The notes under the pieces are model-generated. The model had not been told where the DNA came from and searched no databases. It saw only the letters and a program-made list of their open reading frames with translations. A DNA stretch of 64,000 nucleotides from Venturia oleaginea (taxonomy: Eukaryota > Ascomycota > Dothideomycetes > Venturiales > Venturiaceae): assembly GCA_013176395.1 (NCBI GenBank), contig JABMLP010000017.1:620001-684000 (forward strand), in the 5' to 3' direction. How positions within the stretch are numbered: position 1 is the stretch's first letter; the number at the start of each line of letters is the position of its first letter. This document shows positions 44,474 through 63,621 of this stretch, in pieces. The position numbers were made by a program, and so were the translations under genes.

Positions 44474-45834
44474 ATGGCAACTCAAGCTACACCAAGCTCT
44501 TCAGGACGGAACGAATCCCACGACGATCGAAACAAAGCAAAGGTCAATCCACCCGAGGTGTTCAAGGGAGAACGCGGCAAACTCAAGACGTTCTTAACTC
44601 AAGCCAACCTTTACATGTACTGGAACAAATCCGAGTTCGACACTCAGGAAAAGAAAATCATGTTTGTTCTCAGTTACATGCGAGGAACTGCTTATGCTCT
44701 GTTCGAGGATCGCCTCAACGAGTATCTCTCGGATCCAATGGATTACCCCGGCAAACGACTCTTCAACCAATACGGCGAATTTCTCAAACAGATCAACATG
44801 ACGTTCGGCAACGTCGATGAGAAACGTATTGCGGAAAGAGAGCTCAAGGCTTTGAGACAGCATAAATCCGCAGCAGATTACTCCGCCCACTTCCAGCGCA
44901 TCGCTGCACACCTTAATTGGGGAAGTGAGGCCCTGCTCAGCCGATGCTATGATGGCCTAAGGAGGACATCAAGGATGAAATCAGTCGGAAAGAAGATCAG
45001 CCTCAGGACCTGTACTCGATGATTGAAACGTCAATCAAGATCGACAACCGCCTATTCGAAAGAAAACTTCAGAGGAAGGGAGTTAGTTCTTATCGAGGAC
45101 ATGGAAGCAACAGTCGTGCGAACACAGGTGTTCGACGAGTTGATCCATACGGACCACAGCTGATGGAGCTCGACAAGATTCAGAGCGCTCCACGTGGATC
45201 CAAGAAAGGCACAGGTCAGAAAGGAAAATGTTACAACTGTGGAAAGACAGGACATTATGCCAACAAATGTCGACAGCCCAAAAAGAACAACACTGGACGT
45301 TTCACGAATCAGGGACAACGATTCGGAAACTCACCCATCGGCTCAGGACACCTCAACGCCTTACAATCCAATGCGTCAGTACCGCCAATCCACAACGTAC
45401 TGAGCTGGACGGCTTGTTATGAGGACAACTGCAAGGTACACCTATCCGAGAAGCAGGGCTCCGGATACTACCCTCGGGATAGAGGAGGTTACCAAGGCAA
45501 CGGCAATGTCAAAGGACATCTCGCTATGATGAGTTCGTCATCTAGCTCACCCGGTCTTTATTGCACTCAGCTGGGATTGCCAAAACCAGAGTATGGCCCA
45601 AACCAATTCAGGGTTGGGAATACAATGGCTGCTGTCAAAGTCATCAGCAGATACCCAAGCATGAGAAAGAATCCGGAACACGATCTTACTGGAGGATTCC
45701 ATCGAACTGGTGCAAAGTCAAAGAATGCCCACTGTGGGAGCACAAGTCCGAGGAAGACCCAGGAGAACCAGATTGGGAATTCCACTGGGTTCACGAAAAG
45801 GAAGTCAACAATACGAACCTCAGGAAGATCATGA
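44474..45834 (+). pseudogene. Gypsy gag with zinc knuckle
   Basis: Starts MATQATPSSSGRNESH; capsid region FKGERGKLKTFLTQANLYM is typical of Retrotrans_gag. A frameshift near 45000 leads into the nucleocapsid with CYNCGKTGHYANKCRQ (CX2CX4HX4C) at 45230-45271. A Gln/Asn-rich linker follows. Confidence 0.88.
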
Positions 45835-46131
45835 AAATCCCAAACATCAGTGCAAATGCACAGCACGTCCACCACAGACACTTACCTATGAATTGGTGCG
45901 AGAATGAGGAATGCGATTTACCTCAGCACCAGGAAATGAAAGATCTTGGAGAAACACTCCAAGAGTTGCCAGCCATTTCCGGGAGTTGGTCTACACCAAA
46001 CGAAAACGAATCTCTACAGACTATGTCGGGCGACGACAGTGAGTCTACGGTAGAAGACAACTCCAACGAAGGAGAATCGAAGGAAGATCTAGAGTTTATG
46101 ACCTTCCGGCTCTCACGTTTGACACGAGACG

Positions 46132-46899
46132 TTGAACGAGCAATTGATCAGGACGTTTATCCAAATGCATGCCTTGACTTCACCTGCCCATACCATCCGA
46201 ATGGGGCAAGGAACCTTCGACACCTTGTCCGACGATTGGACATCGCAGTCAATACGAAGCAAACACGCAAATGGCATGAGAATTCGGGAAACGAGAGGAT
46301 CAACAGTAGAGAGGCCTCTGTTGAATCCTAATGAAGCGCCTCATTTTCTGAACAACCTTGGTACACCCAAGATGCTGGTCGAAGGAAAGATCGACAACGT
46401 ACCAGCATGGGCCTTCATCGACACCGGTGCCGATAGGAATCTTCTAAGCGAGAAATTGGTCGACGAATGGAAACTACCCGTACGGTCGAAACGGCATCCA
46501 TATCCACTAACTATCGCTGATGGAAGACCTGTCGACTCCAATAGAGGCATGCTAATTTACGAAGCAGACGTAACCTTGTGGATACAAGGGAGGAAAGAAC
46601 AGATTGTTCTAGACGTCACGAGTATTGGAAACTCGGATTTGATCTTTGGTCTGCCATGGCTTCGAACTCACAATCCGCATATCGACTGGGGAACATTGAC
46701 GCTCACGTTCCCAGACCAACGATATCCCGTGCAGGCTAGCATGCGCGCTAGAACACGGACAGCACAAAGACCTTTGCGGAAAAGGCCTACACACGTTGAA
46801 GTGGCACACTGCTATCGTTTTCAGACAGAGGAGGATAGGTCAGTATTCCAAATTCCCAATGAGTACCAGGAATTTGTGGAACTTTTTAAAGAGGAATAG
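46132..46899 (+). pseudogene. Gypsy aspartic protease
   Basis: Retropepsin active site AFIDTGADRNLLSEKL near 46420, second strand LIFGLPWLRTHNPHIDWG. Ends at a TAG (46897-46899) inside the linker to RT; a second TAG follows at about 46963. Confidence 0.88.
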
Positions 46900-48370
46900 A
46901 TCGAAGATTCTCTTCCACCACACCAACCATGGGATCAAGAGATCAAGCTTAAGAACAACGAATAGCCAAAGAAGTTCAAATTCTACCCGCTGCGCGAAGA
47001 TCAGCTTGAAACTCTTTGTGAATACATCGACGATTTCACGAAGAAAGGGTTCATCCTGGAGTCGAAGTCACCCGCCGGATATCCAGTTTTCTACGTACAC
47101 AAGCCCGATGGTTCTCTCGAATGATACACAGTGAAAAGATAAAGATTTAGGATTGCATGAGGTTCAAAATGAACCGGTGATCGAGCGATATTTATACAGA
47201 TTCGAGTGATCTGAAATCAAAACGAGGGTACGTGACTCTAACGGCCATATACAGCTGTATCATCTAACAGGTTCACAACGATTGTGTGTCGATTACCGAC
47301 ATCTGAATGAGATTTCAGAGAAGAATGCGTACACGCTGCCTTTAATCCAGGAGTTGAGGGACAGACTCCAAGGAGCCAGATGGTTCACGAAATTCGATAT
47401 TCCTGCGGCTTTTCATCGAATTAGGATTAAGGAAGGTGACGAGTGGAAGACAGCATTCCGCACTCGCCTTGGGCACTACGAATACCTTGTCATGCCCTTC
47501 GGTTTGACAAACGCCCCTGCGACGCTGCAAGCCTATATGAACAATGTGCTTTACGAGCACTTAGACAAGTTTGTGTCTGTTTATATGGATGATATTGTGG
47601 TTTACTCTCGAACGTTCGAAGAACACGTCAAACACGTTCGAACCGTTCTCCGCGCACTACAGAAATTTAACTTACGGCTAAAACCCTCGAAAAGCGAATT
47701 TCACAAGCAATGAATCAAGTTCGTTGGATGTTTTTTCTCTCAAGCTGGACTTGAGATTGACCCGGAAATTTACCAGAAGGTCCGCGATTGGCCAGTACCC
47801 TCGAACGTCAAAGGAGTACAGTCATTTCACGCCTTCGCGAATTATTATCGACAATTCATCGAAAGCTTTTCCGAAGTTGCAGAACCCCTCACGGATTGAT
47901 GAAGAAGGGGATTACCTTCGAATGGAACGAGCATGCGCAAAAGGCCTTTGACGCACTCAAGATACGGTTAACAACACCACCCATTCTGCAACTGTTTGAC
48001 TCAGAAAAACCAGCCACAGTCGAGGCGGATGCGTCCGATCGAGCCCTCGGAGCATGCCTCAGCCAACCCGATTCAGATGGAAAGCTTAGACCAGTAGCTT
48101 ACCACGCACGAAAATTCCTGAAAGCAGAAATCAACTACTCCACTTCAGACAAGGAACTCATGGCCATAGTTGATGCCTTCAAGCACTGAAAGCATTATCT
48201 TGAAGGAGCGAAACACAAGATTACCGTGTATTCCGATCACAAGAACCTGCGGAATTTCACGACGACAAAGGAATTGAATCGACGGCAACTAAGATGGTCA
48301 GAAGAACTGTCATCTTACAACTTCCATATTCTTTACAAGAAAGGAAAGGAAAACGTTAACGCCGATGCAT
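46900..48370 (+). pseudogene. Gypsy reverse transcriptase and RNase H
   Basis: RT: KKGFILESKSPAGYPVFYVHK, then after a 143-bp insertion LCVDYRHLNEISEKNAY, KFDIPAAFHRIRI, MPFGLTNAP and the active site VYMDDIVVYS. A TGA interrupts at 47711-47713, then a frameshift near 47890. RNase H: VEADASDRALGACLSQ, DKELMAIVDAFKH, a TGA at 48187-48189 where Trp is expected, then VYSDHKNL. Confidence 0.9.
47121..47263. mobile_element. 143-bp TIR-like insertion within Gypsy RT
   Basis: Sits between ...HKPDGSL and RLCVDYRHLN, which are adjacent in intact elements. Ends are ATGATACA...TGTATCAT (8-bp inverted). Flanks contain GGTTC on both sides (47110 and 47271), suggestive of a duplication, but the exact target duplication is unclear. 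Confidence 0.55.
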
Positions 48371-50165
48371 TAAGTCGACGAGAAGACTTCATGGCAGGAG
48401 AAAAAGAGAAAGTCGAACGCGCTTTGTTTCGACAGGAAGGTGATGCACTTGTGCACCAAGTCTCATCACTTCAGACAGGAAAGCCCTCTTATTGGCAAGA
48501 GGTCAGGAACGCGCAGCAAAAGGATCCAGATGTACAAGGCTACATTCAATCAGCAGATCAGAATACCCGTATTGAAGACGGATTGTTCCTCTTCAACAAC
48601 ATGGTATATCTTCCCACGAGCCTTAGGAAACAGTACATCCTACATCAACACGAATCTCCACTCAATGGTCATTGCCGACCAGAGATTGTCCTTTCACGAC
48701 TTCAGAATACCTTCTACTTCCCGCACATGCGACAGGAAGTTTTCAAGGAAATAGGAAAGTGTGTTCTTTGCAAGAAGGCCAAGTACGAACGACACAAACC
48801 CTACGGACTTCTCCAACCCAACAAGGCACCCGACGGTGCATGGAAGACCATATCGATGGACTTCGTTGGACCATTGCCACCTTCTCCGAATTTGGATAGT
48901 GTTTGTCACGGCGAGCATTGAACCAGACAGAATGAACTAAGATTCCATTTACTCAGTGTGATGAGAGAATATCAGATAGAGAGTAAGTAACTACGGGGCG
49001 CGCGAGTTGATGTTCCTCTCGCCACAGTGTAGCTGCGAAACGTTGTCATGTGACAAAGATGGCCACCATGCCATGCCGTCACAGTGTTCAATTTGAACAT
49101 ATCATGGTTGTGATAAATCGACTCACGAAGTACGCGATCTTTATCCCACTACCGAAAGGCTACGACACGCAATACTTGGCAGGAGTATTTGTGCGAGATG
49201 TCATCAGCAAGCATGGCATTCCTGATAGTATCATCTCAGATCGAGACAGCCTCTTTACCTCTCATTTTTGGAAAGAGATCTGTGAGATGTTAAAGATCAG
49301 AAGAAGCATATCGACAGCTTACCACCCTCAGACGGATGGACAAACAGAAAGAATGAATCAGACAATGGAACAGTACCTTCGCATCTACGTCGATGACGAT
49401 CAAAGCAATTGGGTATCGCTTTTACCTCTTGCAGCATTCGCTTATAATGCTACTGTTCAGGACACAATCAAGATGTCACCATTCTTTGCTAACTTTGGAC
49501 GAGAACCTCAATTCGAGATTGAGCAAGGAAACCTCTTATCCACAGAAGCAACCGTTCTTGCCTCTGAGTTGTCAAGGCTTCAGGATCAATTGAAGCATGA
49601 CATTACCTTCTTGAATATGCGCATGGCGATGCGTACGAATCAGAAGAGAACAGTGGGACCTGTTCTGAAGAAGAGGGATAAAGTTTACCTATGGCGACGC
49701 AATATCAAGACGAAGCGGCCAAGCGAAAAACTTGACTTCCGGAAGCTTGGTGCTTTCGAAATCGAAGAAGTCAAAGGTGCAGTCAACTACAAACTCAAGT
49801 TACCCAAGGGAATGAGAATACACCCAGTGTTCCATGTCTCCTTGCTTAAACCAGCACACCCAGACGCCCCGCTTGACGAAAAAACAATACTCCAAGGCGA
49901 CCGACTCGAGCCTGAGTATGAGGTCGAAACAGTTCTTGATCATGCTATTGTGCGACGTCAGCATAAGTATCTCATCAAGTGGAAAAACTATCCTACCTCT
50001 GAAAACACTTGGGAACCTATGTCGCACCTGAAGAACTCTCTCCAAGCTCTACAGGATTTCCATCGGAAACACCCAGAGCACTCCAGTCCACCATCCCTGA
50101 AGTCTCGGTCACCCCAAGCAGCGAGGCGAAGTCGAAGGAAGGATCCGCTAGGTCACCATCGGTGA
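48226..50165 (+). pseudogene. Gypsy integrase with C-terminal chromodomain
   Basis: H2C2 zinc-binding part HQHESPLNGHCRP...CVLCKKAK, core start ISMDFVGPLPPSP, interrupted by the solo LTR at 48904-49083, then VVINRLTKYAIFIPLPKGY, ISDRDSLFTSHFW and AYHPQTDGQTERMNQ with the catalytic Asp and Glu. A GPY/F-like region (PVFHVSLLKPAHP) precedes the chromodomain (EYEVETVLDHAIVRRQ, YLIKWKNYPTSENTWEP). Chromodomains target insertion to heterochromatin marks. Confidence 0.92.
48904..49083. mobile_element. Solo LTR C (180 bp) inside the Gypsy integrase
   Basis: TGTCACGGC...GCCGTCACA, flanked by GTGTT on both sides (48899-48903 and 49084-49088). Removing it and one duplication restores the integrase frame (PNLDSV to HIMVVINRLTKY), which fixes the borders. 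The ends resemble solo LTR B but the interiors differ. Confidence 0.85.
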
Positions 50166-52970: not shown

Positions 52971-54619
52971 ATGTTGTACTTGGTGGCGCTCTTCGCTAGC
53001 TTGCTGGCCTACGTATGTCATCTAACCCCGCCATAGTTACGATCCCCAACACATCCTAACAAGAAGCCAAAAAGTTCACACTCGAAGGCCTATACAATCT
53101 CTTCCTCCACCCATTAAGGCACATCCCCGGGCCAATCGTCAACCGATTCTCAAGTATCCCCCGCCACATTGCAACAATTCAGGGCAGACACTGCCATATT
53201 CTTTCATCTCTACATAATAAATATGGACCCGTCGTACGGTTTGCCCCAAACGAAATTTCTTACATAACAGCCCAATCATGGAAAGACATCTATGGACACG
53301 GTAGAGCCGACATATTTAGTCGACACCTGGGCGCATATGGAGTGCGAACATCCGAGAAGGAGCACATCCTGTCTGTGAGAGATCCAAAAGATCACGTCCG
53401 GTTACGAAAAGCCTTCAATCCAGCTTTCACCGAAAGAGCAGCCCGAGAGCAAGAAACGATATTGGCTAAATACGCGGACCAGATGATCTGGAGGATGGGG
53501 GAAAATGCAAAGAGGAGCAGTACTGTTGATCTGGAAGAAATCTTCACATTCACGACTTTCGATGTTATATCCGACCTAACATTCGGAGAATCACTCCATC
53601 TTCTAGAGCAAGGCGAGTCTATTCCATGGGTGAGCATCATTTTCGACGGCCTCAAGTTCGCCGCATGGGGTGGAATTCTGCAGCGAATTCTGGGATCACC
53701 ACTGGACATGTGGATCGCAACCGTTCTCCTAGCACCGTTCAAAGAGAAATCAGCGCGTCACAGTAAATTCGCATACGACAAGGTCGACAAACGAATGCAA
53801 CAAACAAAGACTGAACGGCCAGATTTCTGGAAATTCATCTTTAGCCCTCATGACGAGCAAGAGCCAGTACTCTCACAGGAACAAGTACGTCTGAACTCAT
53901 CCGTGATCATCATCGGCGGCTCCGAAACTTCAGCCACCTGTTTGTGCGCCCTCGCTTTCTACATGATGCAAGATCAGGACGTCTATTCGAAGCTAGTCCA
54001 AGAAATCCGCACGACTTTCCGTGAGAGCTCCGACATCAACTTAATCGATCTGGCCAAACTACCCTATCTCAACGCCTGCCTCAAGGAATCACTAAGGATT
54101 TTCCCACCTGCTGCTGCAGGCCTAGTACGAGTTGTGCCTCGTCCAGGAGAGCAGGTTGATGGGATATGGCTCCCAGGCGATGTAAGTACACTTCCACAAG
54201 CGTCTCATGGTCTAAGAAAACCTAACGCTCCATAGACGATCGTGTACACGAGCTCCTACGCAGCATATCACAACGCGTCGAATTTCCACGACCCAGAATC
54301 ATTCCGCCCCGAACGATGGCTGGCAGAATCAGGACCCTTCTCAAACGACAACAAAGCTGTCTTCCAACCCTTTTCCATAGGCCCACGAAACTGCATCGGC
54401 AGAATGTAAGCCCCCACGTACTTATCAAGGAATGATTCATGAACTGACGCTTCCCACAACAGTTTGGCGTGGCATGAAATGCGATTGTTCATGGCAAAGG
54501 CCCTTTGGCACTATGATTTCGAGTTGTCCGATCGCACCGGCAACTTTGTCGACACAGAAGTATTCGTCACATGGGAGAAGAAGCACTTGATCGCAAAGCT
54601 CAAGCCGGTGAAGAGGTGA
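52971..54619 (+). CDS. Cytochrome P450 monooxygenase
   Basis: Haem-thiolate monooxygenase anchored in the ER. N-terminal membrane anchor (MLYLVALFASLLAY), hinge FLHPLRHIPGP. I-helix motif GGSETSAT, K-helix ESLR in CLKESLRIFPP, FRPERW, and the haem-binding loop FSIGPRNCIGR with the Cys ligand. Exons 52971-53016, 53067-54181, 54236-54405 and 54463-54619 give 495 aa. The first junction is uncertain: the strong GTATGT donor at 53013 gives the wrong phase, so I used the weaker GTCATC at 53017. The hinge and overall layout recall the CYP65 (isotrichodermin hydroxylase-like) group, many of which act in secondary metabolism. Substrate unknown. It lies 4.5 kb from the repeat-peptide gene and could belong to that cluster. 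Confidence 0.88.
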
Positions 54620-59131: not shown

Positions 59132-59654
59132 TCATTTGTGGGCAACGACTCCACCAGTCTCGCGGTCACTGACATCTCTGATGATGTCTTCGTATCGCTT
59201 CTTGTGGGCAACGACTCCACCAGTCTCGCGGTCACTGACATCTCTGATGATGTCTTCGTATCGCTTCTTGTTGGCAATGACTCCACCAGTCTCGCGGTCA
59301 CTGACATCTCTGATGATGTCTTCGTATCGCTTCTTGTGGGCAACGACTCCACCAGTCTCGCGGTCACTGACATCTCTGATGATGTCTTCGTATCGCTTCT
59401 TGTTGGCAATGACTCCACCAGTCTCGCGGTCACTGACATCTCTGATGATGTCTTCGTATCGCTTCTTGTTGGCAATGACTCCACCAGTCTCGCGGTCACT
59501 GACATCTCTGATGATGTCTTCGTATCGTTTTTGGACAATGTTTCCATCTAATTCGTTAGCTTCAGATGCTAGGATGTCGAGGACACATACCTTTTGCGAC
59601 CAAGCCATAAGCAAGTCCGGTGAAGACAAGTGGAAGAACGAGTTCGAATCGCAT
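59132..59654 (-). CDS. Secreted tandem-repeat precursor peptide, candidate Kex2-processed RiPP (dikaritin-type)
   Basis: 159 aa from exons 59654-59591 and 59547-59132 (GTATGT donor, GCTAACGAATTAG branch and acceptor; the join gives Asp in phase). Residues 1-20 are a signal peptide (MRFELVLPLVFTGLAYGLVA). After a 7-residue spacer come six consecutive 22-residue repeats (residues 28-159). Each starts Lys-Arg-Tyr (KRYEDIIRDVSDRETGGV...) and ends Ile/Val-Ala-Asn/His-Lys; only those two positions vary. Lys-Arg is the Kex2 site used on secretory precursors, and fungal dikaritin precursors (UstA, PhomA) share this plan of signal peptide plus KR-delimited repeats with an aromatic residue near the core. 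Two UstYa-family genes lie 1.8-4 kb away. The exact core residues and final product cannot be read from the sequence. Alternative: a repeat-containing secreted structural protein such as a repellent (Rep1-like) peptide. Confidence 0.82.
59135..59530. repeat. Coding minisatellite, six units of 66 bp
   Basis: Six head-to-tail copies of a 66-bp unit (GACTCCACCAGTCTCGCGGT within each). Copies differ at only a few positions (GTGGGCAACG or GTTGGCAATG at the start), grouped in two variants in the order A-A-B-A-B-B from the left. The opposite strand is also open throughout because the unit lacks stops in that frame. Confidence 0.95.
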
Positions 59655-60814
59655 TGTTGAGGAAGACGAAACGATCAGCCTAGAAGAGCTTTGAAAAGAG
59701 TTGGGCGGTTTGATTGGGTTGATAGATTGAATTGGAGAACTGGATGAGCTGGTCGAGGCAGAATATGTCCTTTCTTATTGACCTCGACGGTATAGCCTGG
59801 TCAATGTTGAAACTCCGCCGAGAGGAATGTAAAAAGAGCTGGGCTCGGGAGCTCGTTCATTCTCTCTCGCTTCCGCCTCCCTCCTATCTGCACTCTGAGA
59901 CCAAGGAGCAGCGATGCAAAGCGTCATCGACAGATAGTTGAAGCGTCCTTCGGAGCTACCTCCACTTTGATCAAATCATCCGAATTATCTCCACCCTGTT
60001 GTCACCAAGGCCCAGGGCCAGCATAGCAACGAAACTCCGCGACAAGGCTCATCAAACTTACAACAAGACCAGGAGGTTCTTAGGGCTTCGTCTTCATCCA
60101 TTTCCCGCACTCCATTCAGAAAGATGAGGTCTACTGATTTGTAAGTGCTAATTGTCCACCTGGCATTTACGGGGACATGGGATCTGGTACTGGTCAGATG
60201 TGTGTTGGAGCCTGTCAACTGAGCAACGCCAACTTTTCGATCAGTGACAACTATACGTTGCCATGGCCTGGCTTACGAATCTGGAACGACAACTGAGTGC
60301 AATACCATGTTTAGCGGCCCGTTGTGGCCCTGCCACAAAGACGTGGACACTTCGCGAGAATTCGTAAAGAATTTCGAGCTTCCTAGTTCGCGACCCGGCG
60401 TAGATCTCATCTATACTAGCACATGCGCAGAATGCCTCTCGGCCCGTGCGAAGCGAGGTATATCAATCTTGATCTCATTTAGGTAAGGCTACGAATGGTT
60501 CTTGGTTCTTGGTTCTTGGGCGGCAAACCAAAACGTCAAGTATGCACGTCACTCTCGCCGCGGAAATACAACGTTGATAACTCTTGGCAGAATCTTTGAA
60601 TGGGGTGGCCTGAAGCGATCAAACAAGTTGGATAACACAGCGTTCGTATTTACTCAATGTCGCAGACGATTAAATGAAGGATGACTCGTGGCAATTATGA
60701 AAATAACCTTGTTCTCAGGTCACTTGCTGCACTGACGCGCTTGATCATGATCCAAGCTAAGCAGTGTAAAAAAAATTATACCGCAAATTCCGTGCCAAAA
60801 AGCACGCCATATTA
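59655..60814. other. Region upstream of the precursor; one doubtful coding fragment
   Basis: 1.16 kb. The precursor's promoter lies in the first few hundred bases. At 60244-60486 a frame with protein-like content (PLWPCHKDVDTSREFVKNF, STCAECLSARAKRG, a possible CxxC pair) may be a remnant of a small Cys-containing gene, but it lacks a supported start, splice sites or family. Confidence 0.35.
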
Positions 60815-60962
60815 CTGGTGTCAGGGGATTTAAATGTCTATCGGGTCTACAATGCTTTGACTGCCGCAAGGATTCGCAGGGGTATTTTTTACTGTAAAGC
60901 GGATACGAGGCAGGGTTGATAAGGATGTGGCCACTTGACATTTAAATCCCCTGATACCACAG
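60815..60962. mobile_element. MITE (148 bp) with TA flanks
   Basis: Inverted ends share CAGGGGATTTAAATGTC (60821 onward and 60938 onward, opposite strands); the outer few bases differ by a 2-bp gap. TA flanks both sides (60813-60814, 60963-60964), as for Tc1/mariner-type elements. No coding capacity. Confidence 0.75.
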
Positions 60963-61420
60963 TAGGCTTGCATGTTGGGGAAATCGAGTCGACTGAAAAT
61001 GCTAGCAGATGATTAACCCACGGTTTACGTTACATATTTCCACGGCAATTTACGGCATTGGGCGGCACAGAGGGTTCGCTTATTGTCTGTGTAATAGTGA
61101 TCTGAAAAACAGGGGAGCCCGCGCTCGAAGAACCTTGTACCGCAGGGAAAAGCCGATACTGGGTAATATGAGGAATAGGAGGCGTACTTCTAAGTCCGTA
61201 GATGTTCTTCGATCTATGCGTGTACAACTGAGGTATTCGCCCAGCGGCAAGAGCTGAAGTTCTCTTCGCGGCTCCACTCATTTTCAGATCATTATTACAT
61301 TGACAATAAATGATCTTCCGGGCTTTCCGACTGCGTGTGTCCCCACATTTACCAGCTCTTCATCATTTGGTTCAGCATTGGTTTGAGGCATTTGTCTGGA
61401 GCATTGCACAATCTACCACC
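60963..61420. other. Intergenic region upstream of the first UstYa-like gene
   Basis: 460 bp, no element recognised; presumably the promoter of the gene at 61421. Confidence 0.45.
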
Positions 61421-62306
61421 ATGGACCATTGGGGGAATGAAGGCGAAGTTACGAGACTTCGTTCGCGACCACTGAGCTACCTGTCTATAGCTTCTCTATG
61501 GCTGAACCTGATACTGATACCGACTGTCTTCCTCTTAATGCCCAAACAAATATGGCATCAGAGACCAAACGCAAAATCAATGCATCTTCTCGGAGAGTCC
61601 CAGAATCTTGTTCCAGAATGTCAGTGCAATATCTATTCCTACTCCAGCAGTATAAGCTCCAGAAAATTGGAAAAAGACTGACTAACTAACTTGAATAGTT
61701 CCACTTCAGCTCGTTCGATTCAACAGTGATGAACGTTATGCCCACCCGGACTCTTTCGAAGATGCCCACGTCCTCGAAAACGTCTTAAAAAATTGGAGTG
61801 ACGATATGCCATGTACGTTTACTCTACCCTCCCCCATCCCCCAATCCATCCTCAAAAACAATAACAAGAAACCATAACATTAACCAAACAACCCCTAAAA
61901 AGCCGGCAGAGGATTCATCCGCATCACCCGCCACAACAAGACCCACCTCCCAAACCCCTTCAAAATCCCCAACGACACAACCAGCTACGGCTACTCCGTC
62001 TCCAGCTTCCACCAAATCCACTGCCTCTACCAAATTATGTCCGGCTTCGGCAGTCTGAAATTTGGCCGCGAGTTCAATGCGAAGGCGGACCATTCGAACC
62101 ATGCGGAGCGGCAGAGACATATGGTTCATTGCTTTGATTATTTGAGGCAGGGTGTGCTTTGTGCTGGGGATATGGCGTTGGAAGGGGAGAGTGTGGGGAT
62201 GAAGGGGGAGACGGATGGGTGGGGGTATTTGCATGTTTGTAAGGATCGGCGGGAGATGTTTCGGTGGGTTGAGGGGAATCGGGTTGGTGATTTGGGGGGG
62301 ATTTAG
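61421..62306 (+). CDS. UstYa-family (DUF3328) oxidase-like protein
   Basis: Exons 61421-61619, 61699-61812 and 61903-62306 join in phase (238 aa). A short cytosolic tail, one membrane segment (about residues 19-40, LSYLSIASLWLNLILIPTVF), then the DUF3328 domain with both signature HxxHC boxes intact: HQIHC (141-145) and HMVHC (177-181), followed by CFDYLRQGVLCAGDMALE. UstYa-type proteins catalyse oxidative cyclisation of ribosomal peptides in ustiloxin, phomopsin, asperipin and cyclochlorotine pathways; the His/Cys boxes are thought to bind metal. Conserved WGYLHVCKDRREMFRWVEGNR near the end fits the family. Opens toward the second UstYa gene, so the two converge 311 bp apart. Confidence 0.9.
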
Positions 62307-62365
62307 GGTGTTTTTCTTCTTAGATAGATGAAGGAATGGTGAATCTGTTGGTGTGGTTTGGCACT

Positions 62366-62645
62366 GTGGGAATTGGTTTTCTGGCTTGAATATGAGGGAC
62401 GGGCTTGTTTTTGTGGAAGGGAATCATATGTTTATTCTGTAGATGAAGGGAATGTTTTGAATGAACGAAGTCCGCGTTGTTATAATTTTGTCGTTATGAG
62501 AATTGATTTTCTGGCTTAACCATGAGGGATAGAGTTGTTTCTGTGGAAGGGAATCACATCTGTTACGTAGACGAAAGGAACAATTTGAATGAAGAAAGCG
62601 TTGTTCATAATTTTACACTATGGGAATTGATATTCTGGCTCGACC
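62366..62645. repeat. Tandem repeat of about 125 bp overlapping the 3' end of the second UstYa gene
   Basis: Two and a fraction copies starting GGGAATTGGTTTTCTGG (62368), GAGAATTGATTTTCTGG (62499) and GGGAATTGATATTCTGG (62622). The third, partial copy holds the last codons of the UstYa gene on the minus strand; the two full copies lie in its 3' flank. Shared words include GTGGAAGGGAATCA and TTTGAATGAA. Formed by local duplication of the 3' end. Confidence 0.8.
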
Positions 62646-63621
62646 AAAGGGACACGACCTGTCCTCCTCCCTTCCTGAACACCTGATTCATACCGTTCCC
62701 TAAAGATCTCCATCTGCTCGTGCCGCGTCAGTTCGTCGGGGTGTGATGCTTCAAAATCCAGAGTCGCCTTCTCCACCGCAGCATCCTGAGGAAAGACAAT
62801 GGCATCCGCCGGCCTAGGAACATACTGCACCCGTCTATCATAATCAACACGATTCTGTCTCGCGACATCCAGCAGAGCGCTGTAATCCCTGCACTGCCGA
62901 TTGACCTGAAAATCAGGCTCCGGCGACGGTTCCCCCTCAAGCCATTGGTACGTGTACATGCCGTAATCGACATGACACATCAATCCCTCGAGAAGACTGC
63001 GTATACAATGATCCACGTGGATCAGACCCAGGTGCTTCGGTTTCCCGTGGGGAAAGTAGTATTCGGAATGGACGAATTTCCTCACCATGTTTAGGCAGTG
63101 GATCATATGTATGTGGTCGAATTTGGCCAGCCATCTCCTGTCCCCGTATCCAAAGTCTGAGTTTTCAGGGAGGTGCACGTGTTCTGCTGGGTTCTTGCCC
63201 ATTTGTCGTATTTCGGATTCTGTTAGTAGGAGGATCGAGTTGGTGTAGAGACTGTTCCATGCGTCGTCGACCTCTTTGCTTGGAGGGAGACGGAAGACAT
63301 CGGAGTAGTCCCCTGGACCGAGACTTATGTTTGTGTATTTGTAGAATGACTTTGCGGGTAGAGCTTGTGCAGGACTCATTGCTGTGCCGAGATTAGTTTT
63401 GGTGTGAAATTGGTTCAGGGTGACGTACTTGTATCATGGTACGGTCTGCATTGACTGATTTGGAGTAACCAACCTGCTGCCATTCCAAGGAGAAAGATTG
63501 ATGGCGCGGCGACCCATGGTAGTATCTTGTGAGTCCAGCGTCCATGGCGGAAGCTTCCTTCGCCCTTTCGAATGATATCGACGCCATCGAGCAGCCCTTC
63601 TATTTCCTGGTCCGCGCCCAT
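62618..63621 (-). CDS. UstYa-family (DUF3328) oxidase-like protein, second copy
   Basis: Exons 63621-63429 and 63381-62618 join in phase (GTACGT...GGCACAG), giving 318 aa. N-terminal cytosolic 30 residues, a membrane segment (about residues 33-54, ILPWVAAPSIFLLGMAAGW), then DUF3328 with HMIHC (156-160) and HVDHC (186-190), both intact, with LNMVRKFVHSEYY between them. It continues 100 residues beyond the usual domain end with a charged tail. Sequence outside the motifs is very different from the gene at 61421, so this is not a recent duplicate. In known dikaritin clusters two or more UstY proteins often act together (UstYa and UstYb). Choice of start: the ATG at 63621 gives a normal cytosolic tail; another in-frame ATG lies at 63675. 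Confidence 0.92.

What the first reader, a model, noticed from the sequence alone, without database searches (positions are those of the whole stretch)
59132..63621. Candidate undescribed dikaritin-type RiPP cluster: repeat precursor plus two UstYa proteins
Seen: a signal-peptide protein of six KR-delimited 22-residue repeats, and two nearby genes each with both intact HxxHC boxes of DUF3328. Known: ustiloxin, phomopsin, asperipin-2a and epichloecyclin precursors have a signal peptide and Kex2-delimited repeats, with UstYa-family proteins forming the macrocycle. Inferred: this locus makes a cyclic peptide. The repeat (YEDIIRDVSDRETGGV...) matches no precursor I know, and its acidic, Arg-containing sequence is unlike the short hydrophobic cores YAIG or YVIPID.
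Basis: partly seen in the sequence, partly recalled or inferred. Interest (0 to 1): 0.92.

Follow-up and report, generated by a model that had tools for sequence, protein, structure and literature searches.

The report
Fungal repeat-peptide cluster with copper-oxidase genes
This fungal locus carries a gene for a secreted protein made of six near-identical peptide copies next to genes of the enzyme family that chemically modifies such peptides, so it probably makes a modified, perhaps ring-shaped, small peptide of a kind already known from other fungi but with a new sequence.

Summary
At 59132-59654 (minus strand, one 43-nt intron) lies a 159-residue precursor with a signal-peptide-like start and six 22-residue Kex2-delimited repeats, YEDIIRDVSDRETGGV(IAN/VAH)KKR. 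Two UstYa-family genes follow within 4 kb, both with intact HxxHC boxes (Pfam PF11807, 79.7 and 151 bits). A third, divergent HxxHC gene starts 0.6 kb beyond UstYa-B, past the window end. Best reading: a UstYa-associated Kex2-repeat (dikaritin-type) RiPP cluster, with secretion, Kex2/Kex1 release of a 19-mer beginning with Tyr, then copper-dependent oxidation. The actual modification is not shown. The kind is known: one survey lists 7878 Kex2-repeat proteins, 1758 near DUF3328 genes, and 6 of 15 UstYa loci read in this genome have a repeat array nearby. New are the core sequence and its one relative found (Stemphylium lycopersici), which keeps YEDIIxDxxDRET but not the tail. A Cys-rich, HxxHC-type family below Pfam's cut-off is a further lead: 6 of 7 genes found lie in three of these clusters, though one of the six has both boxes altered. 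Filed as a new member of a known kind.

The parts
59591..59654 (-). Precursor gene exon 1: start codon and signal-peptide-like start (MRFELVLPLVFTGLAYGLVAK)
   Evidence: best N-terminal 11-residue window 2.32 on the Kyte-Doolittle scale; no signal-peptide predictor was available
59548..59590 (-). 43-nt intron GTATGT...CTAAC...TTAG
   Evidence: inferred from consensus ends, no RNA evidence
59132..59547 (-). Precursor gene exon 2: DGNIVQKR and six 22-residue repeats YEDIIRDVSDRETGGV(IAN/VAH)KKR; the last ends ...VVAHK-stop
61421..61619 (+). UstYa-A exon 1 (N-terminal hydrophobic helix LSIASLWLNLILIPTVFLL)
61699..61812 (+). UstYa-A exon 2
61903..62306 (+). UstYa-A exon 3 with both boxes, HQIHC and HMVHC; spliced protein PF11807 79.7 bits, profile positions 3-220 of 220
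63429..63621 (-). UstYa-B exon 1 (N-terminal hydrophobic helix)
62618..63381 (-). UstYa-B exon 2 with both boxes, HMIHC and HVDHC; spliced protein PF11807 151 bits
   Evidence: six homologues P0002-P0007 at E up to 1e-10, 54-86% identity over 42-99% of the query

Best explanation
This is a biosynthetic locus for a ribosomal, Kex2-released, oxidatively modified secreted peptide (dikaritin-type RiPP). The precursor enters the ER by its signal peptide. In the Golgi, Kex2 cuts after each KKR and Kex1 trims the basic residues, giving two 19-residue peptides, YEDIIRDVSDRETGGVIAN and YEDIIRDVSDRETGGVVAH (M 2121.03 and 2130.03), each with Tyr exposed at its N-terminus. The membrane-anchored UstYa-A and UstYa-B, and probably a third divergent HxxHC protein encoded just past the window, act on it with copper and oxygen. 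The likely core is the Tyr/Ile-rich start (YEDII), and the conserved DxxDRET stretch is probably the enzyme recognition follower; the rest of the repeat is a variable spacer. Shown by sequence: gene structure, repeats, Kex2-type sites, enzyme motifs, clustering, a homologue with the same motif. Inferred: processing, modification, partner assignment, core and follower boundaries. A Tyr-ether ring to an Ile is the first guess, not a result.
For: Signal-peptide-like start plus six KR-delimited repeats. UstYa-A starts 1.8 kb from the precursor's start codon, and UstYa-A and UstYa-B end 0.3 kb apart. Both score over the Pfam cut-off, each with one N-terminal hydrophobic helix and paired HxxHC boxes, the architecture described for the copper enzyme CctR (PMC12435403). 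Stemphylium lycopersici P0001 keeps the Kex2 phase and 10 of the first 13 repeat residues, while none of the next six match (0 of 200000 residue shuffles of the Stemphylium unit reached ten matches). Repeat arrays were found at 6 of 15 UstYa loci of this genome. DUF3328 genes are enriched next to Kex2-repeat genes in a published survey (PMC7329392).
Against: No expression, mass or genetic data. No S41 peptidase or tyrosinase match on contig C9 (2 and 25 genome matches at E up to 0.001, all on other contigs). The repeat lacks the EDYxI core of ustiloxins and phomopsins. The only precursor homologue shows two repeats, and its neighbours could not be read. No precursor homologue was found in Venturia effusa, the only named species with a UstYa-B homologue. 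9 of 15 UstYa loci of this genome showed no convincing repeat array, so a UstYa gene does not by itself imply a repeat precursor. A mobile-element-like insert lies between precursor and UstYa-A. The structure model of UstYa-B failed (pLDDT 41.7), so the metal site was not checked.
Confidence: 0.78

Rival explanations
1. The precursor releases a linear, unmodified secreted signal or effector peptide, and the neighbouring UstYa genes serve another product.
For: Most surveyed Kex2-repeat proteins (6120 of 7878) have no DUF3328 neighbour, and linear Kex2-derived peptides are known in several fungi (PMC9769878, passages). The 19-mer is highly charged (net -3) and longer than the 4- and 6-residue cores quoted for ustiloxin, phomopsin and asperipin.
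Against: The expected number of UstYa loci within 5 kb of a random point is about 0.003, and two canonical plus one divergent gene are present. The repeat has a Tyr at position 1; 65.6% of DUF3328-linked repeat sequences have Tyr against 38.2% of others.
Confidence: 0.15
2. The UstYa enzymes modify the peptide without closing a ring: hydroxylation, desaturation or chlorination of Ile, Asp or Val side chains.
For: DUF3328 members are reported to halogenate, hydroxylate, oxidise and isomerise as well as macrocyclise (PMC12435403). The title of a cited paper reports dehydroamino acids installed by UstYa proteins in phomopsins (reference list only). The core has two Ile and several Asp.
Against: A Tyr close to an Ile is the pattern of ether-ring formation in ustiloxin and phomopsin, though there with Tyr-x-Ile spacing, not the Tyr-x-x-Ile seen here.
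Confidence: 0.3
3. The precursor is an alpha-type mating pheromone.
For: Same architecture: signal peptide, Kex2-separated repeats.
Against: No XA/XP (Ste13) dipeptides after the Kex2 sites, no cysteine in the protein, no PYGxPxG motif as described for Pleosporales (PMC6339444). Almost all pheromone-type repeat genes (three exceptions) lack DUF3328 neighbours (PMC7329392 abstract).
Confidence: 0.02
4. The precursor is a hyphal-surface repellent of the Rep1 type.
For: Rep1 is also a Kex2-cut precursor with linear products (passages).
Against: The repeat is acidic and highly charged (5 acidic and 2 basic residues in 19), with no long hydrophobic stretch; it lies beside UstYa genes.
Confidence: 0.03

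Closest known systems
Ustiloxin / phomopsin clusters (dikaritins)
   Same: Signal peptide, many Kex2-delimited repeats with Tyr and Ile, two or more UstYa/DUF3328 genes in the cluster
   Different: No EDYxI core; Tyr directly follows KR, so no N-terminal trimming would be needed; Ile at positions 4 and 5, not 3; no tyrosinase or S41 peptidase match on this contig
Asperipin-2a cluster
   Same: Small cluster with a repeat precursor and a UstYa-type oxidase; four genes, no tyrosinase listed
   Different: Core FYYTGY, one UstYa gene, plus a transporter and a reductase; no such domain was hit in the ORFs I scanned between window 53 kb and the end of L003, but I scanned selected ORFs, not every frame
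Dikaritin clusters of Venturia inaequalis (nine, PMC9632046)
   Same: Same gene pairing; UstYa-B's only named homologue is from Venturia effusa at 54% identity
Stemphylium lycopersici hypothetical protein DDE82_006232 (P0001)
   Same: Signal-peptide-like start and repeats YEDIIIDKxDRETAALTEGM(A)KKR: same motif, same Kex2 phase
   Different: 24-residue unit, two repeats visible, different tail, unknown gene neighbourhood

Membership tests
Kex2-processed repeat proteins (KEPs) | Signal peptide | tested here: inconclusive
   Hydrophobic N-terminus in its own exon looks right; no signal-peptide predictor could be run
Kex2-processed repeat proteins (KEPs) | At least 3 repeats of at least 8 residues between dibasic sites (definition in PMC7329392) | tested here: met
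   Six 22-residue repeats
Dikaritins (UstYa-dependent RiPPs) | UstYa/DUF3328 gene adjacent to the precursor | tested here: met
   Two over the Pfam cut-off, a third at 22.6 bits against 25
Dikaritins (UstYa-dependent RiPPs) | Paired HxxHC motif and N-terminal membrane helix in the UstYa proteins | tested here: met
   (helix by hydropathy only); described for CctR in PMC12435403
Dikaritins (UstYa-dependent RiPPs) | Oxidatively cyclised peptide product | not testable with these tools
   Needs mass spectrometry and gene deletion
Ustiloxin/phomopsin subtype | EDYxI / YxIx core | tested here: not met
   Repeat is KR-YEDIIRDVSDRET; core rule
Ustiloxin/phomopsin subtype | Tyrosinase and S41 peptidase in the cluster | tested here: not met
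   No match on contig C9 at E up to 0.001
Ascomycete alpha pheromone | Ste13 XA/XP sites after Kex2 sites | tested here: not met
   Tyr-Glu follows each KR

The most novel reading that the evidence does not exclude
The locus makes a new dikaritin chemotype, a peptide with an N-terminal Tyr freed directly by Kex2 and modified under the direction of a conserved acidic follower (DxxDRET), using three oxidases, one of which belongs to an unmodelled Cys-rich branch of the HxxHC copper-enzyme superfamily that repeatedly accompanies such precursors.
Probability: 0.3. Interest if true: 0.6.

Novelty: new member of a known kind. Interest (0 to 1): 0.4.

Why it matters
[quoted passage not shown] This locus offers a compact precursor and enzyme set with a motif conserved between two fungi, so that what a UstYa enzyme recognises in its substrate becomes testable. 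The Cys-rich HxxHC-type family, if its members are real partners, would be missed by searches that rely on the Pfam cut-off.

Tried and rejected
Fold of UstYa-B exon 2 with six sequences: mean pLDDT 41.7, pTM 0.32, too poor for a fold search, which I did not run. Search of solved structures with the same exon: two hits, best E 0.82, taken as chance. Profile search for more precursor homologues: only P0001 again, and only the 7994 candidates sharing most words were scored, so misses are possible. Literature search for the repeat strings and the Stemphylium locus prefix: 26 papers, 20 listed. The two longer repeat strings have 0 occurrences in all 20 listed rows (the other 6 rows were not seen), and the hits of the short strings look like chance by their titles. 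Alpha pheromone and repellent readings rejected as above. Synteny in Stemphylium or Venturia could not be tested; no fungal collection is readable here.

Dropped rows in the repeat scan of the 15 UstYa loci: at C12 a 63-residue two-copy repeat (97%; has KR, but looks like a DNA duplication; the one doubtful case); at C7 a 60-residue two-copy repeat and two off-frame readings of the true array; at C34 two off-frame readings; at C5 six off-frame readings; at C2:793k a weak repeat inside the UstYa frame itself. Filters differed: identity 0.60 with a dibasic filter, 0.55 without it, 0.55 with it. Stretches read were 20 kb for 10 loci and 10 kb for 4 (C5, C17, C2 twice), besides this one. Five places with UstYa matches below the cut-off (C34:591k, C60:1350k, C23, C30, C56) were not read.

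Full report
Setting. The window is bases 620001-684000 of contig C9 of a 46.1-Mb genome in 61 contigs.

Precursor. The minus strand at 59654-59132 encodes a 159-residue protein in two exons with a 43-nt intron that has a GTATGT donor, a CTAAC branch-like site and an AG acceptor. After the signal-peptide-like start come DGNIVQKR and six 22-residue units. Three units end in VIANK and three in VVAHK; apart from those two base changes and the run into the stop in the last unit, they are identical, synonymous sites included. So the array was recently homogenised and its internal conservation says nothing about selection. The array keeps other frames open as well, so the frame was checked independently. 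The search of 5.8 billion proteins returned one relative, P0001 (Stemphylium lycopersici DDE82_006232), at E 6.1e-4 with the single sequence. Its E of 8.9e-20 came from a profile that already held part of P0001 and is not independent. P0001 has its own signal-peptide-like start and two repeats YEDIIIDKxDRETAALTEGM, also directly after KR. Ten of the first 13 residues are shared in register, none of the next six, and none of 200000 residue shuffles reached ten matches. This is the only evolutionary evidence on which part of the repeat matters, and it points to YEDIIxDxxDRET.

Enzymes. UstYa-A (plus, three exons, 238 aa) and UstYa-B (minus, two exons, 318 aa) score 79.7 and 151 bits against Pfam UstYa, cut-off 25, and each has one N-terminal hydrophobic helix and two HxxHC boxes. 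They look like different branches. In the alignment UstYa-A resembles paralogues on C2 and C4 by eye, while UstYa-B has a long C-terminal extension shared with Venturia effusa (P0004, 54%) and an unnamed sequence P0003; other unnamed relatives reach 86% identity over part of the protein. No tree was built. DUF3328 proteins are described as binuclear-copper, oxygen-dependent enzymes; of PMC12435403 I read the first of three text parts and found passages. A hydroxylase, a halogenase and a cyclase of the family are described there, so family membership alone does not tell the reaction.

Third gene. Just past the window end, C9:684192-684950 encodes a 252-residue open frame with one hydrophobic helix and boxes HQYHC and HGTHC. 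It scores 22.6 bits against UstYa, below the 25 cut-off. Its relatives in the same genome form a Cys-rich family: with single-protein queries I found seven genes. Six aligned members share three Cys before the boxes and both HxxHC boxes. Four of the six hit UstYa weakly in Pfam, best E 0.00011. A profile comparison with eight canonical UstYa proteins aligns the two boxes at probability 70%, E 3.9e-5, which is suggestive, not conclusive. Of the seven genes, six lie in three loci that also hold a UstYa gene and a repeat array (C9 one, C4 three, C5 two). The second C5 gene has both boxes altered (FVVHC, HTELC), so of the six with intact boxes five lie in these loci. The remaining one, at C60, has no repeat array within the 10 kb read. 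NCBIfam, a library for prokaryotes, has no match for the two members I scanned.

The rest of the genome. UstYa has 31 exon matches at E up to 10, which I group into 15 loci over the cut-off. I read all 15 (this one in the 64-kb window plus 20 kb at and beyond its end, 10 with 20 kb, 4 with 10 kb) and scanned them for Kex2-delimited repeats. Five places below the cut-off were not read. Convincing arrays are at 6 of 15: C9 (this one), C7 (DADAGMSYYKR), C4 (NVDDTKYAWYNFKR), C34 (EPYAYV..VEKR), C5 (PLFAKVDKR) and C17 (AEAYQGFNNKVSKEKR). A seventh, at C12, is doubtful and not counted. No other array was seen in the 64-kb window or the 20 kb at and beyond its end. I did not model the other five precursors; signal-peptide-like starts are visible by eye in the C34 and C5 frames only. 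So the locus is one of a set, which strengthens the class assignment and lowers the novelty. I had no control scan of loci without UstYa genes beyond this window and its flank and the C60 stretch.

Missing parts. S41 peptidase and tyrosinase, found in ustiloxin and phomopsin clusters, have no match on C9. Because Tyr directly follows KR in this precursor, Kex2 alone would free the N-terminus; this is an inference that would explain the missing peptidase.

Known kinds. PMC7329392 (abstract and outline, sections 7 and 13, part 1 of section 6, and passages) found 7878 such precursors, 22% of them near DUF3328 genes. PMC9632046 (passages) reports nine dikaritin clusters in V. inaequalis. PMC12048977 (abstract and outline) reports 987 RiPP clusters in 111 lichen-fungus genomes. 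Cores of ustiloxin, phomopsin and asperipin come from passages of PMC7329392 and PMC6514808. The EDYxI rule and pheromone features come from passages of PMC6339444, and linear Kex2 peptides from passages of PMC9769878. The repeat was not seen in print in the one search made for it (20 of 26 rows seen). A search for papers with DUF3328 or the HxxHC motif (40 of 45 rows seen) showed no title or abstract start about a second, Cys-rich branch; I did not open most of those papers.

Verdict. It is a new member of the UstYa-linked Kex2-repeat RiPP kind, with a novel core. My estimate that the peptide is oxidatively modified by these enzymes is 0.78, and that the modification is a Tyr ring about 0.45. 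The most original lead is the Cys-rich HxxHC-type family, which needs a fungus-wide test.

Noticed in passing
L003:1192-1950 (C9:684192-684950) and paralogues on C4 (three), C5 (two), C60 (one): Cys-rich HxxHC-type family below the Pfam UstYa cut-off; 6 of 7 genes found lie in three loci with a UstYa gene and a Kex2-repeat array, one of the six with both boxes altered.
   Followed up: partly
C7:77795-78595, C4:647399-647596, C34:1309979-1310491, C5:721904-722068 and 722296-722538, C17:575153-575353: Five further loci with Kex2-delimited repeat arrays beside UstYa genes, each with a different unit.
   Followed up: partly
window 60816-60959: Small inverted-repeat element (23-nt arms, 96% complementary) between the precursor and UstYa-A; 40 other matches in the genome (a lower bound; two adjacent ones on C7 may be one copy), like a miniature transposon.
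   Followed up: partly
window 61080-61309: Second inverted repeat, 40-nt arms 85% complementary, 150 nt apart, just upstream of UstYa-A.
   Followed up: no
window 53060-54232: Cytochrome P450 open frame (134.6 bits) about 5 kb from the precursor, with a Memo-like gene between; its C-terminal part was not resolved, and membership in the cluster is open.
   Followed up: no
window 44953-50162: Retrotransposon-like ORFs (zinc knuckle, aspartic protease, RNase H, integrase, chromodomain) about 9 kb from the precursor.
   Followed up: no
L003:2673-4571: GT90-like glycosyltransferase frames beyond the third HxxHC gene, the second over Pfam's cut-off; could mark the cluster's edge.
   Followed up: no
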